Assembly (NCBI GenBank): GCA_003598085.1
Contig: QZKU01000045.1
Coordinates: forward strand, 21,792-85,791
DNA length: 64,000 nt
From: Candidatus Abyssobacteria bacterium SURF_5
GTDB taxonomy: Bacteria > Abyssobacteria > SURF-5
Direction: 5' to 3'
A program made the translations under genes and the position numbers. Shown here in pieces: positions 1 through 12,692 of the stretch (the first letter of the stretch is position 1; each line of letters starts with the position of its first letter). Under the pieces are notes generated by a model, which worked only from the letters and a program-made list of their open reading frames with translations, searched no databases and was not told the DNA's origin.

Positions 1-1505
1 CATTTTCGACTAGGCCATGCGGTCGAAGTAGTACTATAAGGAGATAGTCCTCCAGATGGTGCAATTGGCTTGTAGCCTTTATATGTAGGATCACTGATCC
101 ATATCTTTTCAGTAAACGCTCCAATAGTCAAGGCGTTCCATGCCTGCCCTGGATCATGGACCTCATTTGACAGATTCGCGTCGGAATAGTTTCGCCAATC
201 ATCGGAAGTGCTAACGTTTCCGGCGCTGATTAAGATAAGACGTCGAGTATCATCTTCGTATCCAGAGGCTATCTCGTCCAATTTGGCTGACCAAGAAGAT
301 GGCTTGCCCTGGTCACGGGTTTGCTCGGAGGTGACAGCAATACACCCGATGCGCTTTCGAGTTGGCGCTTGAATCTCTGCAAGACTTATCCCCTGGGCCG
401 TAAAATATCCCCATAACTCCTTGGCATTCCTGTCAGGCGGTGGTGGCAGTATTTTTGCCGACTCTATGCAATGGGTGATGTTCACGGGAACATCGTGATC
501 AAGAAGAAGCGACAAATCACCATACGCAGCAGTTCCCGCCATAAGAGTTCCATGACCATCATCATCATTTGTGCCCCAATGTCCACGAACAGCGTGAAGG
601 TCGTCGGGGTTGAGAACCGGCTGAATCAGCAAGTGCCCATTATTCACACCTGTATCAAGAATACAGACAGCCACATCTGAGTCTCTGTCAACAATTGTAC
701 GCGCCAACAGTCTTTGCACCAACACCAACTGATCGCGGTTATCCATCTGGACGTAAAAAGAAGCTATCTTCTTGGCCCCCCTAAATTCCGCAATGTCGTC
801 CGAGCATTCAACTAATTGTTTCAGTTGGCTGCGATTCGCCCGAATAAGCATAACTGTTCTCTCTGGAAACTTAAGAATACCTTCTTTCAATTCGCACTTC
901 ACACTTCTCAACAACGGCTCAAAATGAGAGACAACTTGATCTTGGTCGCTGCTCAGCCAGACCTCGACCCAATCGGGGGAATTACCCGGTATAAGAGATC
1001 GCTCCTCTGGACGCCAGAAAGATTCCAAGACGGCAAGGCGAATGTCGTCAATGCTATTCACCAGATTATAATTTTTTGGTCTCTTGCTGCGCTCGTTAAT
1101 CTCAGTCGCATATGCTCTAATTTTACTTAGGAAGTAGCGGCGCTTGTTATTTGGAACGTAGACCGTTGCCAGAGTCCGCTCCAGACCTTGCTCGTCTTGC
1201 TTTCGGACATTCTGGAGACGAATTCCAGACCGTAACACATCAAGGCTCTGGACAATCAAGTCGAAACCTGGTGTACTTTGAAATTCAATGTATGTACCTT
1301 GGCGTTCCACGTAAACGGCTGTTCGACGTTGACGTTGGTCAGCTTCAGCCCAAGTCTCATTGAGGCGCTCCTGCAGATGAGCGCTATGCTGTTCTCGGTT
1401 TCGTGGTGGAATCTTTGGAGAGCGGCCCCCTTTATTTGGGCTAGTAAATCCTTGTGTGTGGGTTGGCCCTGCCAAGAATATGTGCCTGTATCGCTCACCA
1501 GCCAT
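1..1505 (-). CDS. ietS: Subtilisin-like serine protease (S8), IetS-like, 3' end cut by window edge
   Basis: Partial gene: the frame is open from an ATG at 1505 to base 1, 501 codons with no stop. The catalytic Asp is D284 in an ILDTG motif, the His is H318 in GHGT, and the oxyanion Asn is N430 in SAGN. The nucleophile Ser (GTSxA) should lie just beyond the edge. About 270 residues precede the catalytic Asp, with no signal peptide or membrane segment, so the enzyme is probably cytoplasmic. The ATG lies 6 nt after the stop of the AAA ATPase gene, implying translational coupling. An AAA ATPase followed by a cytoplasmic subtilase is the IetAS arrangement, known from Agrobacterium plasmid incompatibility/stability and later reported as anti-phage. 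The protease is certain; the IetS assignment is inferred from gene pairing, order and size. Confidence 0.8.
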   Translation of the reverse strand, partial: MAGERYRHIFLAGPTHTQGFTSPNKGGRSPKIPPRNREQHSAHLQERLNETWAEADQRQRRTAVYVERQGTYIEFQSTPGFDLIVQSLDVLRSGIRLQNVRKQDEQGLERTLATVYVPNNKRRYFLSKIRAYATEINERSKRPKNYNLVNSIDDIRLAVLESFWRPEERSLIPGNSPDWVEVWLSSDQDQVVSHFEPLLRSVKCELKEGILKFPERTVMLIRANRSQLKQLVECSDDIAEFRGAKKIASFYVQMDNRDQLVLVQRLLARTIVDRDSDVAVCILDTGVNNGHLLIQPVLNPDDLHAVRGHWGTNDDDGHGTLMAGTAAYGDLSLLLDHDVPVNITHCIESAKILPPPPDRNAKELWGYFTAQGISLAEIQAPTRKRIGCIAVTSEQTRDQGKPSSWSAKLDEIASGYEDDTRRLILISAGNVSTSDDWRNYSDANLSNEVHDPGQAWNALTIGAFTEKIWISDPTYKGYKPIAPSGGLSPYSTTSTAWPSRK

Positions 1506-1511
1506 TTGGCA

Positions 1512-2480
1512 TTAACCTTTGTGTTTTCCGTGCGAGCTTTGTCGTTCCTTCAACATTTGTAGTAGCAAGGTTGCCTTCACCTTTCCCAAATCAGCAAGGA
1601 TAACTTCTTTAATGGCGTCTCGGCAGGCTTGGTCAATCTCTGCATGACTCAACCCTTCACTTTCGGCAAGCACGCTCTTCCACGCAAATCGTGAAGCCAA
1701 GAAACTTCCCAGTACGTTTTGCATCAAACGTCGCCGTTCGTTTTCTTTTGGCTGGTCATAGTAAAGAACGTCATCGAAACGTCGAAACAATGCTCGATCC
1801 AAGAGTTTTGGGCTATTCGTAGCGGTAATGATTAGGCTATCAGAAACATCCTGCTCGATGAATTGCAGAAATGAATTCAGAACACGGCGCATCTCTCCCA
1901 CATCATTTTCTAAAGTCCTCTCACCGCCAATCGCATCGAATTCATCGAATAAGTACACCCCAAGGTCCCTCTGAACCAAGTCAAAAATCTGGCGGAGCTT
2001 TGCACTTGTTTCTCCCATAAATTTAGTTACCAGTCGATCCACCTGAATTGTATGGAGCGGCATGCGAAGCTCGTGTGCCAATACGCGCGCAGACATTGTC
2101 TTTCCCGTTCCTGGCGGGCCAACAAGCATAATTTTCCGGCGAGGCATTAGACCGTGCTCTTTGAGTTTCTGCCTTTGCCTGTACTCGTGGATTATTCGTT
2201 TTATTCGCTTCTGTAAGGCAAGGGGTAAAACCAAGGTCGCCTGAGAAACGTCCGGTTCCCCCGACAGGACAAGTCCCCGCAAATCTTGCGGAAACTTTAA
2301 AAGTGTGAGCCTATTTTCGCTGCGCGCTTCATCAACCATTTTGCGGATATCATGAGCCAGCGCGCCATGTCCCTGCTGAGCCTCGTATGCTGCAACCTGA
2401 AGTGCAATAGTGTAAAAACGTTCCGGGTCCTCACTGAAATGACACCTTATCAATGACTTGATCTGTTCCGCAGTTGCCAT
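1512..2480 (-). CDS. ietA: AAA+ ATPase, IetA-like
   Basis: A 322-residue single-domain AAA+ protein. Walker A is GPPGTGKT (121-128), Walker B is VYLFDE (175-180), sensor 1 is TN (221-222) and the arginine fingers are R233/R234. An N-terminal helical region of about 115 residues precedes the ATPase core. There is no membrane segment. The start at 2480 has GGAGA five bases upstream. A sigma-70-like promoter lies at 2539-2567. It is the first gene of a two-gene operon with the subtilase. In IetAS systems the ATPase is thought to control or feed the protease; how it recognises targets is unknown. Many stand-alone AAA proteins look alike, so the protease partner is what gives this assignment its weight. 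Confidence 0.82.
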   Translation of the reverse strand: MATAEQIKSLIRCHFSEDPERFYTIALQVAAYEAQQGHGALAHDIRKMVDEARSENRLTLLKFPQDLRGLVLSGEPDVSQATLVLPLALQKRIKRIIHEYRQRQKLKEHGLMPRRKIMLVGPPGTGKTMSARVLAHELRMPLHTIQVDRLVTKFMGETSAKLRQIFDLVQRDLGVYLFDEFDAIGGERTLENDVGEMRRVLNSFLQFIEQDVSDSLIITATNSPKLLDRALFRRFDDVLYYDQPKENERRRLMQNVLGSFLASRFAWKSVLAESEGLSHAEIDQACRDAIKEVILADLGKVKATLLLQMLKERQSSHGKHKG

Positions 2481-2538
2481 AAGATTCTCCGAATTTCTTT
2501 TCGCTAGCTCATGCGCGACTGCAAATGTCTATGTTCAA

Positions 2539-2567
2539 AGTGTACTTGATTTGCTGAAGATTATCAA
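2539..2567 (-). promoter_or_regulatory. Sigma-70-like promoter for the AAA/subtilase operon
   Basis: On the minus strand, TTGATA (2562-2567), a 17-nt spacer and TACACT (2539-2544). It lies about 60 nt upstream of the ATPase start codon. The -35 matches at 5/6 and the -10 at 4/6. The pair therefore seems to have its own promoter, independent of the chromosome around it. Confidence 0.5.
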
Positions 2568-3041
2568 ATTATTAGAGGTACAGGCGAATGGAATCATTTC
2601 ATACGGCTCCTACACCCCACCTTCCTGATGCCTATGCATCATCCATTGTGAATTGGATCAGGTTCTGCTATCTTCTCCGCAGATGGACACGACGCCTTAT
2701 AGAAGACATCCGACCACCTCGATGCAACATAAGCGGCTGTGTCAGCAGCGGCTGTGTCAGCATCAGCCTTCACATCTTCCTCTGTCGGCTCCTGTGCCCA
2801 CAGGCGGACATTCTGCACCCTTGCCTCTCTCTTTGCCTCTAGGAAGTCCTCCTGATACTTCATTCGGCGGGAATGTTCCGCGATGCCGGTCTGAAGACGG
2901 CTGCACTGAAGCAAGGGGTTTATTCAGAGAGGCTTGGAAATGAAACAAGTACACTGACAAGCACACTCGTCCATTTTCCCACCAACCAAGAAAAATCTGC
3001 CGAGCTCACAAATAAAAATAGGGCAAAGAATAATAAAAAAG
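2568..3041. other. Gene-poor segment between the AAA/protease pair and tRNA-Arg
   Basis: No convincing gene. An open frame on the minus strand (ATG at 2860 to 2639, 73 residues) contains an in-frame short tandem repeat (Ala/Asp/Thr-rich, encoded by repeated GCTGACACAGCC-like units around 2735-2775) but has no ribosome binding site and no recognisable domain. It may be a remnant of an integrated element. An A/T-rich stretch follows up to the tRNA 3' end. This is where an integrase or attachment-site remnant would be expected; none was recognised. Confidence 0.4.
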
Positions 3042-3115
3042 AGCGCCCGACTGGACTCGAACCAGCGACACGCGGTTTAGGAAACCGCTGCTCTATCCTT
3101 CTGAGCTACGGGCGC
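3042..3115 (-). tRNA. tRNA-Arg (anticodon CCT)
   Basis: Full cloverleaf on the minus strand. The acceptor stem GCGCCCG pairs with CGGGCGC. The D-arm follows GTAGCTCAG, the T-arm contains GGTTCGAGTCC, and the 7-nt anticodon loop TTCCTAA gives CCT. No CCA is encoded. Its 3' end faces the accessory segment at 1-3041, the usual geometry for elements integrated at tRNA genes. Confidence 0.95.
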
Positions 3116-4942: not shown

Positions 4943-5833
4943 TTAGCGGAAAAGGTACTGTACCGGAGGGCGCATCCCCTGCGATGCCGGAAGGTACAGT
5001 TGCAGCATGTTCTCGACAAATTCCCCGAATGGAAATCGTCTTTTGTGCTTCCGTATGATTTGAGGCTCGCCCTCGATGCCGGCGAGAGAGGCCGCCCGCA
5101 TGACCGCATCGTACTGCGTGCCCAACGCATCGACAAATCCGTATTCCAGGGCCTGCCGCCCGCTGAATACCCGGCCGTCCGCATACTGTCTCACCTGTTC
5201 AACCGGCATATTGCGCCCTTCGGCCACAGCCTCCACAAACTGGTCGTAGACATCCATCAGCATCTTCTGAATCAGATCCTCTTCTTCGGGAGTCATCGAC
5301 CTGAACACTGAGCCGGTGTCTTTGAATTGTCCCGTCTTTATGATGTCAAACTTTATGCCGATCTTTTCCATCAGCCCCTGAATATTCGGGAATTCGGCAA
5401 TCACCCCAATGCTGCCGGTGATCGTACCGGGATTCGCGTATATCTCATCGGCCGCGCATGCGATGTAATACCCGCCCGACGCCGCAACCGAGCCCATCGA
5501 TACAACTACTTTCTTCCCCTGAGCCTTCGCCCGCTTCAGTCCCTCGTAAATCTCCTGAGACGGCGCCACGGCTCCACCCGGACTGTTTACCCGCACAACA
5601 ATCGCTTTCGCGGCCGGATTCTCAATATATTCCTTCAGTTGTGTCAGCGTCTCTTCCCCGTCGAAGATCGGACCTTCCACCTCGAGCAGAGCCACGCTCT
5701 CGCCGGCTCCTCCAAATCGCCAAGCTCCGCCGTCGCCATACGAGACGAAAATCAGGATGGCCAGCAGCCCCATCCCGAAAATGAAACTCACGAGCACGCC
5801 GATCAGCACGCTCGTCCGACAGCCCTTATTCAT
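4943..5833 (-). CDS. sppA: Signal peptide peptidase SppA (S49 family)
   Basis: Membrane-bound serine protease that degrades cleaved signal peptides. It has 296 residues from ATG 5833, which has AGGAGA eight bases upstream; an upstream in-frame start would run into the promoter. One N-terminal membrane segment (about 8-32) is followed by the S49 domain. The nucleophile is Ser119 (AASGGYY) and the general-base Lys171 (FKDTGS), 52 residues apart as in Bacillus SppA. This is the short, single-domain form, unlike the duplicated E. coli protein. It is first in the operon with the sigma factor and apt. Confidence 0.93.
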   Translation of the reverse strand: MNKGCRTSVLIGVLVSFIFGMGLLAILIFVSYGDGGAWRFGGAGESVALLEVEGPIFDGEETLTQLKEYIENPAAKAIVVRVNSPGGAVAPSQEIYEGLKRAKAQGKKVVVSMGSVAASGGYYIACAADEIYANPGTITGSIGVIAEFPNIQGLMEKIGIKFDIIKTGQFKDTGSVFRSMTPEEEDLIQKMLMDVYDQFVEAVAEGRNMPVEQVRQYADGRVFSGRQALEYGFVDALGTQYDAVMRAASLAGIEGEPQIIRKHKRRFPFGEFVENMLQLYLPASQGMRPPVQYLFR

Positions 5834-5930
5834 GAACTTTCTCTCCTTGCGTAGTCCCCGATGAGTTTCCGTGAGAAACCGGGCCGAATGAGGTACCGCA
5901 GGTGAAAATACTCTTCCGACAACGAATGGT

Positions 5931-5959
5931 ATTATAACAACAGCGGAAACCCTTTGCAA
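5931..5959 (-). promoter_or_regulatory. Consensus promoter of the sppA-sigma-apt operon
   Basis: Minus strand TTGCAA (5954-5959), 17-nt spacer, perfect TATAAT (5931-5936). Predicted transcription start near 5924, about 90 nt before sppA. Confidence 0.65.
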
Positions 5960-5996
5960 ACCCTCTGTTGTTCCATCTCCGCATTTCCTCGAATCT

Positions 5997-8408
5997 TCAA
6001 AAAGCCGTTCTTCTACATGCGCTCACCCGCAAAGAATCGTTTAGTATCTCGATCACCACCGCCCCGTCCCGCTCCGTCGCGAGCACGCGCCCGCTATACG
6101 GAGCATATCGAATGATCCTTCTCTGTATGCTGTCGTTCACACGAAATGCCCTGCCCGAAATTATCGCCAGCTCCGGTTCCACCTGTTGCATGAAAGGCCT
6201 GCTGAAGCTGCTTGCGAGCCCGTGGTGAGGAACTTTTAAAATCGTGCTCCGCAGCGTCTTCCCGCAATTTTGCATGTCACGAAGAGACCCCTCTTCTGCA
6301 TCTCCCGCCAACAGAAAAGAAAAGTCGCCGCAGCTTATTCTCATGACAAGCGAAATCTCATTGGTCGAATAGCGCTTCTGAGAAACCGACTTCGAGGGGT
6401 TGAGAACCTCCGCCCGCGTCACCGAATCCACCTCGAACACATCGCCCGCAGCCGCATACTCTATACGTATGCCCCGCTCTCTCGCGCGCTCCACGATCTC
6501 CAGAAATGCCGGCGGCCACTGAGCGATATCAGGCAATAGCAACTTTCCCACTTTGAAATGCTCCAGAATGAAGCCGGCGCCGCCGTAATGATCCGCATCG
6601 GGATGTGTAAGCACAAGCGTATCGATTTTCCTGATATTCTTTCTCCAGAGGAACGGCGCGATCAACTGCTCGCCGCAATCAAGAGACGGCGTCGAAAAAC
6701 CGCAATCCACCAGCATCGTTTTCCTCTCGGGCGATTCGATGAAGCATGAATCCGCCTCGCCCACATCAAAAACCGTCATTCGGAAAACTCCGTCCGAAAG
6801 CAGCCTGCCGCTGGAGGCGCTCATTATCCCCACAGCGGCGCAACAGCCAAATACGACAAGCTTTCTCCTCCATCCGGTCCTCCACCACGCAATCAGGATG
6901 CCGAGCATCGTCAAAACCAACACCCAGTAAGGAGGCGACCCAATACGAGCGAAACTGAAAGGTAAGCCTGAAAAGAACCTTACAATCCCGAACATTATCT
7001 GTGATATGATTTCTGCGCCAAATCCGGGTACCGCGGCGGCTTGAATCGATATCGATCCGACTGCAAGCGTGGCGAACCCGAATGCCAGCAGAAAAGAAAG
7101 AAGCGGAACCACGAGCAGGTTTGCAAATGGGAACACAAGTGATACCTGGTTGAAATGATACGCCACAATCGGCGTGAGACCGATCCCAACAATAACCGAC
7201 GCATACAACGTGACAACGAGCTTGTGCAGAATCGGCGATAACGCCCAGGGAAACCGTTCCTGTAACGCCGGATAAAGCCTTCCGCTGAAGAGCGGCTCGG
7301 AAACGCACAGCAGGATGACAGCCGTGAAGGATAGTTGAGAACTGACATCATCGATCGATAGGGGATCCATAAGGAACAGAACAAAGGCCGCCGCCGCCAC
7401 CGCTGTGAGAAAATCGCCCTCCCGGTCCAGCAAATAGCCCGCAAGCACGAGCGTGAGCATGAGCGACGCCCGCATCACCGGCACACCCGCTCCCGTTATC
7501 AGTGCATATGACCAGACAATCAACAGCGCAAGCGCCGTCCGCCATTTTCGATCGAATCGAAGACTTGTCAGTCCCACCGACACAAGAAGATATACCAGTC
7601 CCACATGGAGTCCGGAAATCGCCAAAATATGAAATGTCCCGGTCTGCTTGAACCAATCCTTCATCTCGTCCGTCAAGAGATCACGATCCCCGAGCAGAAT
7701 CGCAGAAAGAAAAGCTGTCGTTTCCTTCGTCCAAACGGAATCCGAAAGTATGACCGACGCCTGCCGGCGCAGGAAATACCTCCAACCCGCGGGAGAAGAC
7801 AGATCAATCCGCTCAACCAGAGAAACCGCGTCCGGCCCTCTCGCTGACATTCTGGTATATATCCCGCGGCGATGCATGTAGCGCTCATAATCGAAAACCC
7901 CGGGATTCTTGAACCCCTTAAGCAATCTTAACTTGCCGAAAACCTCCACCTGATCGCCTTCTAATACTCCCTCCCCGCCTTCATACCAGTTCACCATCGT
8001 GCGACCATTAATCGAAACCCACGAGGGATTATCATCACACCTGCTCGCAGCATCCACATCAAGGAGAAGACTAGTCCGCTCGCCTTCTCCTCTTGAACGG
8101 CTGTATTCGACTATTCTCCCCTTCAACCGCATTGCTGCCGGTCGATCAAATCCGAATTGCAGGGCCAGCGGGTCAAGCGCCTGTACTTCAAATGATTTCT
8201 TTTGGTAAAGGGCCGCGCCTAAAAGAAAACAACATACAAGAACGAGGAATACCGCCGGTATGCGTTTTCCGCAAAGAATAAATATCAGTCCGCTAATCCA
8301 CAGGGCAAGAAAAACGAAAGGAAGGAACATGATCGGAAGCGGTAGGAGTGAGGCAAGACCGGCTCCGCCGATCAGGGATGCTGTCGTCCATACAAGAGGT
8401 CTTTGCAC
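5997..8408 (-). CDS. comEC: ComEC/Rec2 DNA-uptake channel protein
   Basis: Inner-membrane channel that takes single-stranded DNA into the cytoplasm during natural transformation. The protein has 803 residues and starts with GTG. Order: N-terminal membrane segments and DUF4131/OB-like region (1-200), competence domain with many membrane helices (about 220-520, including LAISGLHVGL), then a C-terminal metallo-beta-lactamase-type domain (FDVGEADSCF; HPDADHYGG metal motif) that may degrade the non-transported strand. It lies 10 nt after a response-regulator gene, so the two are probably cotranscribed. No other competence or type IV pilus genes are in the window. Confidence 0.93.
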   Translation of the reverse strand: MQRPLVWTTASLIGGAGLASLLPLPIMFLPFVFLALWISGLIFILCGKRIPAVFLVLVCCFLLGAALYQKKSFEVQALDPLALQFGFDRPAAMRLKGRIVEYSRSRGEGERTSLLLDVDAASRCDDNPSWVSINGRTMVNWYEGGEGVLEGDQVEVFGKLRLLKGFKNPGVFDYERYMHRRGIYTRMSARGPDAVSLVERIDLSSPAGWRYFLRRQASVILSDSVWTKETTAFLSAILLGDRDLLTDEMKDWFKQTGTFHILAISGLHVGLVYLLVSVGLTSLRFDRKWRTALALLIVWSYALITGAGVPVMRASLMLTLVLAGYLLDREGDFLTAVAAAAFVLFLMDPLSIDDVSSQLSFTAVILLCVSEPLFSGRLYPALQERFPWALSPILHKLVVTLYASVIVGIGLTPIVAYHFNQVSLVFPFANLLVVPLLSFLLAFGFATLAVGSISIQAAAVPGFGAEIISQIMFGIVRFFSGLPFSFARIGSPPYWVLVLTMLGILIAWWRTGWRRKLVVFGCCAAVGIMSASSGRLLSDGVFRMTVFDVGEADSCFIESPERKTMLVDCGFSTPSLDCGEQLIAPFLWRKNIRKIDTLVLTHPDADHYGGAGFILEHFKVGKLLLPDIAQWPPAFLEIVERARERGIRIEYAAAGDVFEVDSVTRAEVLNPSKSVSQKRYSTNEISLVMRISCGDFSFLLAGDAEEGSLRDMQNCGKTLRSTILKVPHHGLASSFSRPFMQQVEPELAIISGRAFRVNDSIQRRIIRYAPYSGRVLATERDGAVVIEILNDSLRVSACRRTAF

Positions 8409-9154: not shown

Positions 9155-10027
9155 CTACATCTTCATTCGCGGGTCCAGATAATCCCTCAGCGAGTCCCCG
9201 AGCAGGTTCATCGCCATGATAGTAAGAGCAAGCGCGATGCCAGGGAAAACGCTGATCCAGGGAGCCACGTGCAAAAAATTCCGGCCATTACTGATCATCG
9301 CGCCCCACGACGCTGCCGGAGGTTGAACGCCCAGGCCCAGAAAGCTTAAAGCGGCCTCTCCAAGCATGAACCCGCCCAGCCGGAGGCTTACGGCAACGAT
9401 CAACAGCGGGATGCAGTTGGGCAGCGCGTGCCCCAGGATCAAACGAGGCCCGGAACATCCCGTCGCCAGCGCCGCTACATAAAATTCACTCTGTTTAATG
9501 GATAAGAAAATGCTTCGGCTCAATCGCGCAAACGTGGGCCAGCCTACGAGCGAGAGAGCAACGAACACCGAAACCATTCCGGGGGGAATAATGACGCTTA
9601 TTGCGATCGCAAGCAGAAGGCTCGGAAAGGCAAGCGCAATATCAATTATACTTACCGCGAAAGAATCTACCGGCCCTCCCGCAAATCCCGCAATCAGCCC
9701 GATGACCGATCCCAGCAACAGCGAAATGATTGCTGCTGCGACGGCGATTCCGAGGGAAATACGGGCGCCCGTGAGCGTGCGCGCCAGGATGTCGCGCCCC
9801 TGATTGTCCGTCCCGAGCGGATGTGACATCGAGGGCGACTGCAGCGCTTCATCCAGATCTATATCGTTCGGTTGATATCTCCAGACAAGCGGCCCGATTA
9901 TCGCCGCCGTCACAATAACAACCAAAAGAATTCCCGCAATCGCGGCAAATTTGTCGCGCCGGAAAAACGCGCGAACAGATCTGATAAGTGACGATCTCTC
10001 TGAAGGCATTATCAGGACGTTCTGCAC
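9155..10027 (-). CDS. Peptide/nickel-type ABC transporter permease (DppC/OppC family)
   Basis: Inner-membrane permease of a dipeptide/oligopeptide importer, about 290 residues. N-terminal OppC-type segment, first membrane helix (AGILLVVIVTAAIIGPLVW), the HPLGTDNQGRDILAR motif that marks DppC proteins, then five more helices with the cytoplasmic EAA loop and C-terminal YLDPRMKM. I prefer GTG 10027, with AAGGGG upstream; ATG 10009 has no clear ribosome binding site. It follows the fused binding-protein/permease gene after 49 nt and is the last gene of the operon. No ATPase gene (DppD/DppF) follows. Confidence 0.9.
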   Translation of the reverse strand: MQNVLIMPSERSSLIRSVRAFFRRDKFAAIAGILLVVIVTAAIIGPLVWRYQPNDIDLDEALQSPSMSHPLGTDNQGRDILARTLTGARISLGIAVAAAIISLLLGSVIGLIAGFAGGPVDSFAVSIIDIALAFPSLLLAIAISVIIPPGMVSVFVALSLVGWPTFARLSRSIFLSIKQSEFYVAALATGCSGPRLILGHALPNCIPLLIVAVSLRLGGFMLGEAALSFLGLGVQPPAASWGAMISNGRNFLHVAPWISVFPGIALALTIMAMNLLGDSLRDYLDPRMKM

Positions 10028-10076
10028 GTCTGTTGCCCCTTTCTGAAAGATTGTATTATTCCATCCAAAACTTTCG

Positions 10077-12692
10077 TCATTTTTCCTTCTGCAGCTCAAT
10101 CCGCGGATCGATTGCCGCATAGAGCAAATCGACCAGTAAATTTACGGCGACAAAAACAGCGGCTCCGAAAAGCACCGTTCCCAGAATTACCGGATAATCG
10201 TGCTTCAGAATACCCGTCATCGCATACCGTCCAATGCCATCCCACCCGAAAATTGTTTCCGTCAGAACCGATCCGTTCAGGTAGCTGCCCATATCGATCC
10301 CTATCAGAGTCGTGATCGGAATGAGCGCATTGCGCAACGCATGCTTAATTGCCGCCGTCAACGGAGTTAATCCTTTCGCCCTGGCCGTCGTTATGAACGG
10401 CTGAGAGAGAATCTCCAGCATGCTCGAGCGCGTCACTCTGGCAATAAAGGCCGCCGAATTTGTTCCAAGCGCAATTGCGGGCAACACAAGATACGCAAGC
10501 TCTCCCCGGCCCATACCCGACGGCGGCAACCAGTTCAACGTGTACGCGAATACGAATACCAGTAACAGCGCGAGCCAGAAAACAGGCGTCGAAATCCCCG
10601 CTACCGAGATCATCCCCAATAATTTGTCGGTCACGGTATTGTGCTTGAGAGCCGAAACGACCCCAAGTGTCACGCCGAACAGGATCGAGATCGTTATGGC
10701 CGCGCCCGCCAGCCGCAGCGTATTCGGAAATTTTTCCATGAGACTCCTGGCGACCGGCCTCTTCGTGTAATACGAGCGGCCCAGTTCGCCCTTGCAGATG
10801 AGTCTGAGGTAATTTGCAAACTGCGCCGCCAGCGGATCATCCAGCCGCAGCTCGCGCCTCAACTGCTCGATCGTCTGCGGATCGGCCCGCTCGCCCACCA
10901 GCGCAAGCGCGGGATCGCCCGGCGCCATTTTTAAAATCATGAATACAATCAGCGCCACACCGATCAAAGTCGGTACCGCAATCAGCAGTCTCCGCGCGGC
11001 GTAGGGGAGCAGCGATGGCCTCACCAGGGGATATCCGATTCCAAAAGCAAAAATACCGGCGATTGGCGCCAGAAAAAGGAGCCCCGCCAGACCGGGTCGG
11101 CCATTATTGTCCTCGGCGCCCGCCACCTCTACCCCGGTTCCTTTGTCCGCATGAGGAATAGCTGCCGGCTCGAAACCCTTCACCCACGGCTGCGCCAGAA
11201 AATGATCCGTCCGGTGCCACAGAAAAACCCACGGCGCCTCGTCGATCACTACAGTCTCGGCCTGCGCATATAGCGCCGCGCGCTTCCGCTCGTCCGGCTC
11301 ACGCTGGGCTCTCTCTATGAGCGAATCAAAAACCGGATTGCGGTAAAATGAGCGGTTTCCCGAAGCGCCCCAGTTGGAGGAATGAAATACCGGATACAGA
11401 AAATTCTCCGCATCCGGATAATCTGCATACCACGAGAGCAGAAACATGTCCGCAAGGCCGTCGTTCACCGCCTGCTTGTATGCCGTCCATTCCAATTGAA
11501 CGATCTCAACGTCAACCCCTGCTCTCCTCAAGTAATACTGAATCGCCTCCGCGACCTCCAGCGTGCGCTGATCGGCGCTCTGATACAGTTTCAGTGGGCG
11601 CTGAGGCCGCCTCTCCGATGATAACTCGGCGCGCGCAGTGACCGGATCATATTTGAGCGCACTATCCCTGTGGCTGTGCCCGGGCAACTCCGGCGGAATC
11701 GGGCCCCCCGCCACCTGTGCGCGCCCCTGGAGGATAACCTCGACAATTTTTTGCCGGTCGATCGCCTGTGAGAGCGCCCGGCGAAACGACGCATCGTTCA
11801 TCGGCGGCTTCTGGCAGTTAAAGCCGAGATAGTACGTGTTCAGCCCGCCGCGCACCTTCATCTGTTTCTGACGGGCGCGATCGGCCGATATTCGCGCGTA
11901 TTCGGCCGCCGGGATCTCAAGAATATCCAGATTGCCCGCCTCGAATTCGGCCACTCGCGTGAAATCTTCCGGAATAACCCTGTATTCCATTTCATCCACG
12001 CGCGCGTGTTCGGCGTAGTAAGCATCATTGCGCGCGAGCGTCAAGCGCTCGTCGTGACGCCACTCCTTCAGAATGAACGGGCCCGTGCCTGCCGCATGAT
12101 CCGAAAAATCGTTCCCCCATCGCTCGACCTCTTCACGCGGCACAACATATGCATTTGGCATTGCCAGAAATTGGAGGAATACGGCAAGCGGACGGTCGAG
12201 TTCGATCCGAATGGTATAATCGTCGACCACCTGCAGGCCGGATACTTCGCCGGCATCGCCTTCCATGAATGTGCGCGCGCCCCGTATCGGATCGAACAAC
12301 CATTTCCTCCTCGATCCCGAGTCCGGCGACAACACGCGCTCGAATGAATACTTGACGTCGTGTGCGGTAAGACGGCGTCCATTATGAAAGAAGATGTCGC
12401 GGCGGAGCGTAAAGATATATGTTGTCCCTGCGTCGGAAATATCCCACCCCGAGGCGATATCCGGCGCCACGCTCATGCGCTCGTCAAACCTAACCAGCCC
12501 ATTGTAAAGCTTTGCCGCAACCGATCCGCCAGTCACATCGACGATCATGGCCGGATCGAGACTGGTCGGGTCCTGCGGAAGCGCCATCGCCAGGCGCCTC
12601 ACATTCTTGTCCTGCTCTTTGGAACATGAAGCGGAGATGAAAACAACCAAGAAGAGAAGAAGGAGGAAGGCTGTCGCACAATTTTTTTTCAT
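10077..12692 (-). CDS. Fused peptide-binding lipoprotein and DppB-type permease
   Basis: An 871-residue fusion of two normally separate subunits of a peptide ABC importer. Residues 1-23 are a lipoprotein signal (lipobox SASC, Cys23). About 35-525 is an SBP_bac_5 solute-binding domain (MALPQDPTSLDPA start; WHRTDHF near its end). A membrane helix at about 534-557 follows, then a DppB-type permease (about 563-871; ARAKGLTPL EAA loop near 766-790; ends AIDPRIEL). The linker helix takes the chain from outside to inside, so the permease N-terminus is correctly cytoplasmic and the topology works. The continuous frame across 10.9-11.2 kb argues against an assembly error. ATG 12692 overlaps the stop of the upstream hydrolase as ATGA. 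The substrate is unknown. Confidence 0.9.
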   Translation of the reverse strand: MKKNCATAFLLLLFLVVFISASCSKEQDKNVRRLAMALPQDPTSLDPAMIVDVTGGSVAAKLYNGLVRFDERMSVAPDIASGWDISDAGTTYIFTLRRDIFFHNGRRLTAHDVKYSFERVLSPDSGSRRKWLFDPIRGARTFMEGDAGEVSGLQVVDDYTIRIELDRPLAVFLQFLAMPNAYVVPREEVERWGNDFSDHAAGTGPFILKEWRHDERLTLARNDAYYAEHARVDEMEYRVIPEDFTRVAEFEAGNLDILEIPAAEYARISADRARQKQMKVRGGLNTYYLGFNCQKPPMNDASFRRALSQAIDRQKIVEVILQGRAQVAGGPIPPELPGHSHRDSALKYDPVTARAELSSERRPQRPLKLYQSADQRTLEVAEAIQYYLRRAGVDVEIVQLEWTAYKQAVNDGLADMFLLSWYADYPDAENFLYPVFHSSNWGASGNRSFYRNPVFDSLIERAQREPDERKRAALYAQAETVVIDEAPWVFLWHRTDHFLAQPWVKGFEPAAIPHADKGTGVEVAGAEDNNGRPGLAGLLFLAPIAGIFAFGIGYPLVRPSLLPYAARRLLIAVPTLIGVALIVFMILKMAPGDPALALVGERADPQTIEQLRRELRLDDPLAAQFANYLRLICKGELGRSYYTKRPVARSLMEKFPNTLRLAGAAITISILFGVTLGVVSALKHNTVTDKLLGMISVAGISTPVFWLALLLVFVFAYTLNWLPPSGMGRGELAYLVLPAIALGTNSAAFIARVTRSSMLEILSQPFITTARAKGLTPLTAAIKHALRNALIPITTLIGIDMGSYLNGSVLTETIFGWDGIGRYAMTGILKHDYPVILGTVLFGAAVFVAVNLLVDLLYAAIDPRIELQKEK

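What the first reader, a model, noticed from the sequence alone, without database searches (positions are those of the whole stretch)
1..2567. IetAS-like AAA ATPase plus subtilase pair
An AAA+ ATPase is followed 6 nt later by a cytoplasmic S8 protease whose Asp, His and Asn are visible, under its own promoter. The pairing, order and sizes match IetAS. The biological role of such pairs is still poorly understood. Inference: a defence or element-competition module.
Basis: partly seen in the sequence, partly recalled or inferred. Interest (0 to 1): 0.7.

Follow-up and report, generated by a model that had tools for sequence, protein, structure and literature searches.

The report
Protease toxin–ATPase pair on tRNA island
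This is an ordinary but complete member of a known two-gene family, a protein-cutting toxin (IetS) with its partner ATPase (IetA), carried with other likely defence genes on a 7.8-kb mobile-looking island that sits in an arginine tRNA gene.

Summary
An AAA+ ATPase (322 aa, window 1512-2480, minus strand) is followed after 6 nt by an S8 protease cut by the window edge. Both proteins align over nearly full length with the founding IetA and IetS of plasmid pTiC58 (48% and 39% identity), so this is a real IetAS-type pair. Across 125 relatives the catalytic D/H/N/S are invariant, and across 123 the ATPase Walker motifs, Arg fingers and aromatic pore loop are kept. The two genes stay adjacent and co-diverge (r=0.91). 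Best-supported mechanism, from published tests of relatives: IetS is a toxic intracellular protease held in check by IetA, stabilising mobile elements and/or acting as abortive-infection-like defence; trigger and targets are unknown. The "own promoter" is no better than chance. New member of a known kind; modest interest.

The parts
1512..2480 (-). ietA-like gene: 322-aa AAA+ ATPase; N-terminal three-helix region (about 4-56), AAA module with Walker A GPPGTGKT 121-128, pore loop K-F-M-G 153-156, Walker B DE 179-180, Arg fingers R233/R234
1..1505 (-). 5' 501 codons of the ietS-like gene; the complete gene runs 1023 nt beyond window start (L003:10768-13296, 842 aa); triad D284/H318/S550 and oxyanion N430
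2539..2567 (-). promoter-like hexamers upstream of ietA; not above chance
2947..2967 (.). AAGTACACTGACAAGCACACT, terminal (arm-type-like) repeat of the island; its only other copies in the 5.1-Mb genome are at the island's other end (L003 7217-7249)
3032..3085 (-). 54-bp direct repeat (att-like), perfect copy of L003 7051-7104 (4687-4740 bases left of window base 1); together they bound the 7.77-kb island
3041..3115 (-). intact tRNA-Arg (CCT) at the island's right edge, the insertion target

Best explanation
This is an IetAS-type module. SHOWN here: complete AAA+ ATPase and S8 protease genes in an operon-like arrangement, full-length homology to pTiC58 IetA/IetS, all catalytic and AAA+ residues intact, obligate pairing and co-divergence across relatives, and carriage on a tRNA-bounded island. 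SHOWN by others for relatives: the protease is toxic alone and the ATPase neutralises it (SGI1 SgiAT; mycoplasma 0132/0133). INFERRED for this copy: IetS is a cytoplasmic protease toxin. IetA forms an AAA+ ring, binds IetS and, using its aromatic pore loop and ATP hydrolysis, holds it inactive. When the element is lost, or when a phage or rival element disturbs IetA or is sensed by the complex, IetS is released, cleaves cellular or phage proteins and stops growth, so the island is kept or the infection is aborted. Which trigger and which targets apply is unknown. The two N-terminal alpha/beta regions of IetS, the second with the strand-helix order of a subtilisin propeptide, are the most likely place for this control.
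For: PADLOC IetA 1.4e-72, IetS 2e-26. 48%/39% to pTiC58 IetA/IetS over nearly full length. Triad D/H/S plus Asn 125/125; Walker A, pore loop (F/Y)-M-G, Glu of Walker B and both Arg fingers 123/123 or nearly. IetA found directly upstream of IetS in all loci with enough upstream sequence (130 parsed, median gap 6 nt; L138 also carries IetA). Distance matrices correlate r=0.91, 0 of 1000 permutations reach it. Toxicity and neutralisation of SgiT/SgiA in E. coli: PMC5006074; of the mycoplasma pair: PMC6755753, PMC8562856. IetAS linked to phage resistance in P. aeruginosa carrying it on Pf phage, mechanism stated as unknown: PMC11878078. Model of IetS (pLDDT 90.5) has a subtilisin core (KP-43, Z 25.5); model of IetA (pLDDT 88.9) matches PAN/Rpt unfoldases.
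Against: No activity, toxicity or defence was measured for this copy. SGI1's pair gave no post-segregational killing from its own promoter. A ring that threads IetS is inferred from the pore loop only. The propeptide-like reading rests on predicted secondary structure; no sequence match to subtilisin propeptides was found. The mirror-tree correlation does not separate co-evolution from shared descent.
Confidence: 0.72

Rival explanations
1. ClpXP-like machine: IetA recognises and unfolds phage or plasmid proteins and feeds them to IetS, so the pair is a direct degrader rather than a toxin held by an antitoxin.
For: IetA is closest in fold to PAN/Rpt unfoldases and keeps the aromatic pore loop in 123/123.
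Against: Relatives' proteases are toxic without the ATPase, so the protease does not need the unfoldase to act. Subtilisins are open monomers, not closed chambers (general knowledge).
Confidence: 0.18
2. Purely a stability (addiction) module of the island, with no role against phages.
For: Founding role on pTiC58 and SGI1; carried here on a tRNA-bounded island and by relatives on 463 plasmid records.
Against: Neighbours include a TIR gene and an Abi-alpha-like gene, flanks of relatives often hold type I R-M genes, and phage resistance is reported with IetAS on Pf phage.
Confidence: 0.3
3. Housekeeping or secreted subtilase that happens to lie next to an AAA gene.
For: Genome has four other S8 genes.
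Against: Pairing is obligate across phyla, no secretion signal, family hits are IetA/IetS.
Confidence: 0.01

Closest known systems
IetA/IetS of Ti plasmid pTiC58 (NZ_KY000040, 97873-101373)
   Same: Order ATPase then protease, gap of a few nt, sizes 328/836 against 322/842 aa, full-length similarity 48%/39%, same catalytic and AAA+ residues
   Different: On a conjugative plasmid; here on a chromosomal tRNA island without integrase. Sequence clusters with pairs from Thermodesulfobacteriota, Hydrogenedentota and Aminicenantes rather than with pTiC58
SgiAT of Salmonella Genomic Island 1
   Same: AAA-ATPase antitoxin plus subtilisin-like toxin carried by an integrative island; SgiA 50% and SgiT 36% to IetA/IetS, about the same distance as here (PMC5006074)
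   Different: SGI1 is a much larger multidrug-resistance integrative mobilizable element; its sequence was not compared directly here
Anti-phage IetAS as curated by NCBI (NF042959 / NF042956)
   Same: Detected at 3.8e-62 and 5e-18
   Different: Below the equivalog cut-offs (210.6 of 510; 64.7 of 900 bits); pTiC58 itself is lower still (198.8; no IetS hit at 1e-15)
[quoted passage not shown]
   Same: Same two-gene toxin-antitoxin logic (PMC6755753, PMC8562856)
   Different: 353/757 aa; sequence not compared here

Membership tests
IetAS (PADLOC definition: IetA + IetS genes) | IetA homologue | tested here: met
   PDLC02196 1.4e-72 over residues 2-316; next non-IetA family TRIP13 3e-13
IetAS (PADLOC definition: IetA + IetS genes) | IetS homologue adjacent | tested here: met
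   PDLC02198 2e-26 for the complete protein, 6 nt downstream
IetAS | Full-length relation to the founding pTiC58 pair | tested here: met
   48% over 325 and 39% over 853 aligned positions
IetAS | Intact S8 triad and AAA+ catalytic residues | tested here: met
NCBIfam equivalogs IteA/IteS (anti-phage) | Score over the curated cut-off | tested here: not met
   210.6 of 510 and 64.7 of 900 bits. Calibration: pTiC58 IetA gives 198.8 and its IetS no hit at 1e-15, so the model is narrower than the family
IetAS | Protease toxic, ATPase neutralises | not testable with these tools
   known for relatives only (PMC5006074, PMC6755753)
IetAS | Phage defence | not testable with these tools
   no phage assay possible; only reported for relatives (PMC11878078)
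Integrative genomic island at a tRNA gene | Direct repeats of the tRNA 3' part at both ends | tested here: met
   54/54 identical, only two copies in 5.1 Mb
Integrative genomic island at a tRNA gene | Own integrase | tested here: not met
   No tyrosine-integrase hit on contig C45 and none among the island ORFs by Pfam; serine recombinases were not searched for beyond Pfam on the listed ORFs
Subtilisin I9-type propeptide in IetS 178-243 | Sequence match to I9 or a solved propeptide | tested here: inconclusive
   strand-helix-strand-strand-helix-strand order in the model, top Foldseek hit is a pro-subtilase, but no sequence match

The most novel reading that the evidence does not exclude
The pair is cargo of an integrase-less mobile element: a 7.77-kb multi-defence island (IetAS, TIR, Abi-alpha-like, family-less gene) that keeps att-like ends and element-specific terminal repeats and is moved by an integrase supplied in trans, such as the tyrosine integrase found beside the same tRNA-Arg(CCT) in a sister genus. 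IetAS then acts both as its anchor and as a defence against rivals for that site.
Probability: 0.3. Interest if true: 0.45.

Novelty: new member of a known kind. Interest (0 to 1): 0.3.

Why it matters
IetAS is a widespread module whose trigger and protease targets are unknown. This copy adds a complete, divergent pair with all functional residues. The survey shows which features never vary (S8 triad, aromatic pore loop, Arg fingers, operon order), and these are the mutations to make first. The island context suggests such modules travel on very small elements that lack their own integrase.

Tried and rejected
Promoter upstream of ietA: not above chance. Propeptide (I9) identity of IetS 176-262 by profile search against PDB and Pfam: no match, kept only as an inference. 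Helper integrase in the same genome: no match to the sister-genus integrase (an empty result without a positive control); three tyrosine recombinases exist elsewhere, one of them a fragment at a contig edge. Empty site in relatives: G001 and G002 keep sppA-rpoD-apt-tRNA-Arg(CCT), but the far flank is on another contig or not found, so no clean empty site could be read. No direct repeat bounding the G002 element was found in its first 8 kb. PDB sequence search with IetS: no hit. VIA/Foldseek lists for IetS are filled by the catalytic domain, so the N-terminal domains remain untested as folds. Original pTiC58 paper not held. TIR protein in viral contigs: nothing. Complex prediction of IetA with IetS was not possible with the tools.

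Full report
What is there. The minus strand of window 1-2480 carries two genes in ATPase-protease order with 6 nt between them. The window is G000:C45:21792-85791. Fetching the contig to the left gave the whole protease gene, L003:10768-13296, 842 aa, no internal stop. Pfam gives AAA (7.8e-29) and Peptidase_S8 (3.3e-59).

Family. PADLOC's best models are IetA (1.4e-72) and IetS (2e-26). The pTiC58 record was fetched and compared directly: 48% identity for IetA and 39% for IetS over nearly full length; a Klebsiella plasmid pair gives 48%/38%, an Alteromonas plasmid pair 61%/48%. pTiC58 and the Klebsiella pair are 50%/39% to each other, so the window pair lies within the same spread. NCBI's anti-phage equivalog cut-offs are not reached, but pTiC58 itself scores lower than this pair.

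Survey. Among 125 full-length IetS sequences D284, H318, N430 and S550 are invariant. Among 123 IetA sequences G121, G124, G126, K127, E180, D182, R233 and R234 are invariant, and position 154 is always F or Y, followed by M/L/F and an invariant G: an aromatic pore loop. In 130 loci IetA lies directly upstream (median gap 6 nt); the remaining loci end too close upstream or are fragments, except L138, where IetA is also present. Identity matrices of the two proteins correlate at 0.91, best of 1000 permutations 0.17. The tree places the window IetS with sequences from Thermodesulfobacteriota, Hydrogenedentota, Aminicenantes and a gammaproteobacterial MAG. The two same-family genomes lack it, so horizontal spread is the simplest reading.

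Structure. IetS model (pLDDT 90.5): N-terminal alpha/beta region 64-160, a second one at 178-243 with order beta-alpha-beta-beta-alpha-beta, subtilisin core 276-620, beta-rich C-terminal region 626-811. VIA aligns core plus C-terminal part with KP-43 (1wmd, Z 25.5, rmsd 2.9, 378 aligned); Foldseek's top hit is pro-Tk-SP with propeptide. That the 178-243 region is a built-in propeptide is inference; sequence searches did not support it. IetA model (pLDDT 88.9): three helices (4-56), then an AAA module most like PAN/Rpt unfoldases.

Surroundings. Upstream of ietA is tRNA-Arg(CCT). A perfect 54-bp repeat of the 3' part of this tRNA occurs exactly twice in the 5.1-Mb genome, at L003 14823-14876 and 7051-7104. 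The 7.7 kb between them has GC 0.483, outside the 0.523-0.568 range of equal-length stretches in the rest of the window. Just inside each end lie AAGYACACT repeats at 12-nt period (three units left, the third as ATGCACACT, and two right); the 21-mer pattern, even with two mismatches, occurs nowhere else in the genome. This is the anatomy of an integrated element with att core and arm-type sites. Its genes are a 379-aa protein without a family, a 370-aa protein with a CAP12/Pycsar-type TIR domain (2.4e-18), a 231-aa protein with a weak Abi_alpha match (0.03, below cut-off), and IetS and IetA on the other strand. No integrase is among them. In a sister genus a tyrosine integrase lies beside the same tRNA.

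How it works. For relatives it is shown that the protease kills and the ATPase protects: SgiT lowers transformation 100- to 1000-fold and acts in under 30 min, SgiA counteracts it (PMC5006074); in the minimal mycoplasma, deletion of the ATPase alone is lethal and deletion of both is not (PMC6755753). For P. aeruginosa Pf phage carrying IetAS a link with phage resistance is reported, mechanism unknown (PMC11878078). The same logic is the best explanation here. That IetA works by ATP-driven remodelling of IetS is inferred from its invariant pore loop and Arg fingers; trigger and targets are open.

Verdict. The finding is real and correctly named. It is a new member of a known kind, intact, on a small tRNA island. 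The island is the more informative part.

Noticed in passing
L003 7051-14876 (window base 3085 leftwards to 4740 bases before base 1): 7.77-kb island bounded by perfect 54-bp repeats of tRNA-Arg(CCT), low GC, with AAGYACACT terminal repeats and no integrase.
   Followed up: yes
L003:8724-9836 (+) and 9876-10571 (+): TIR-domain protein (CAP12/Pycsar type) followed by a weak Abi_alpha-like protein, convergent with ietS; the TIR protein has 42-52% relatives on a few rhizobial and Klebsiella plasmids. A possible two-gene defence module.
   Followed up: partly
L003:7362-8501 (+): 379-aa protein without any family match and absent from 59 relatives; its C-terminal RHSVAHG resembles a HEPN RxxxxH motif (by eye only).
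   Followed up: no
L014:4001-4993 and 5664-7361 (Piscinibacter plasmid): IetA-like ATPase (46%) with no IetS nearby; the next gene is a PLD-domain protein. Possibly an IetA with another effector, or an orphan.
   Followed up: partly
L017:12523-13224 (G022): AbiV-type HEPN protein 14 nt downstream of the closest IetS relative.
   Followed up: no
L151:6203-7462 (G002): Tyrosine integrase adjacent to tRNA-Arg(CCT) with a Prim-Pol gene nearby: another element using the same site in a sister genus.
   Followed up: partly
flanks of L019-L098: Of 122 ORFs flanking IetAS in other genomes, 12 match type I R-M specificity subunits and 7 phage integrases.
   Followed up: partly
L009, L011, L026, L057, L072, L093, L100, L118: IetS reading regions with one in-frame stop in my parse; some may be decayed copies or upstream extension artefacts.
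   Followed up: no
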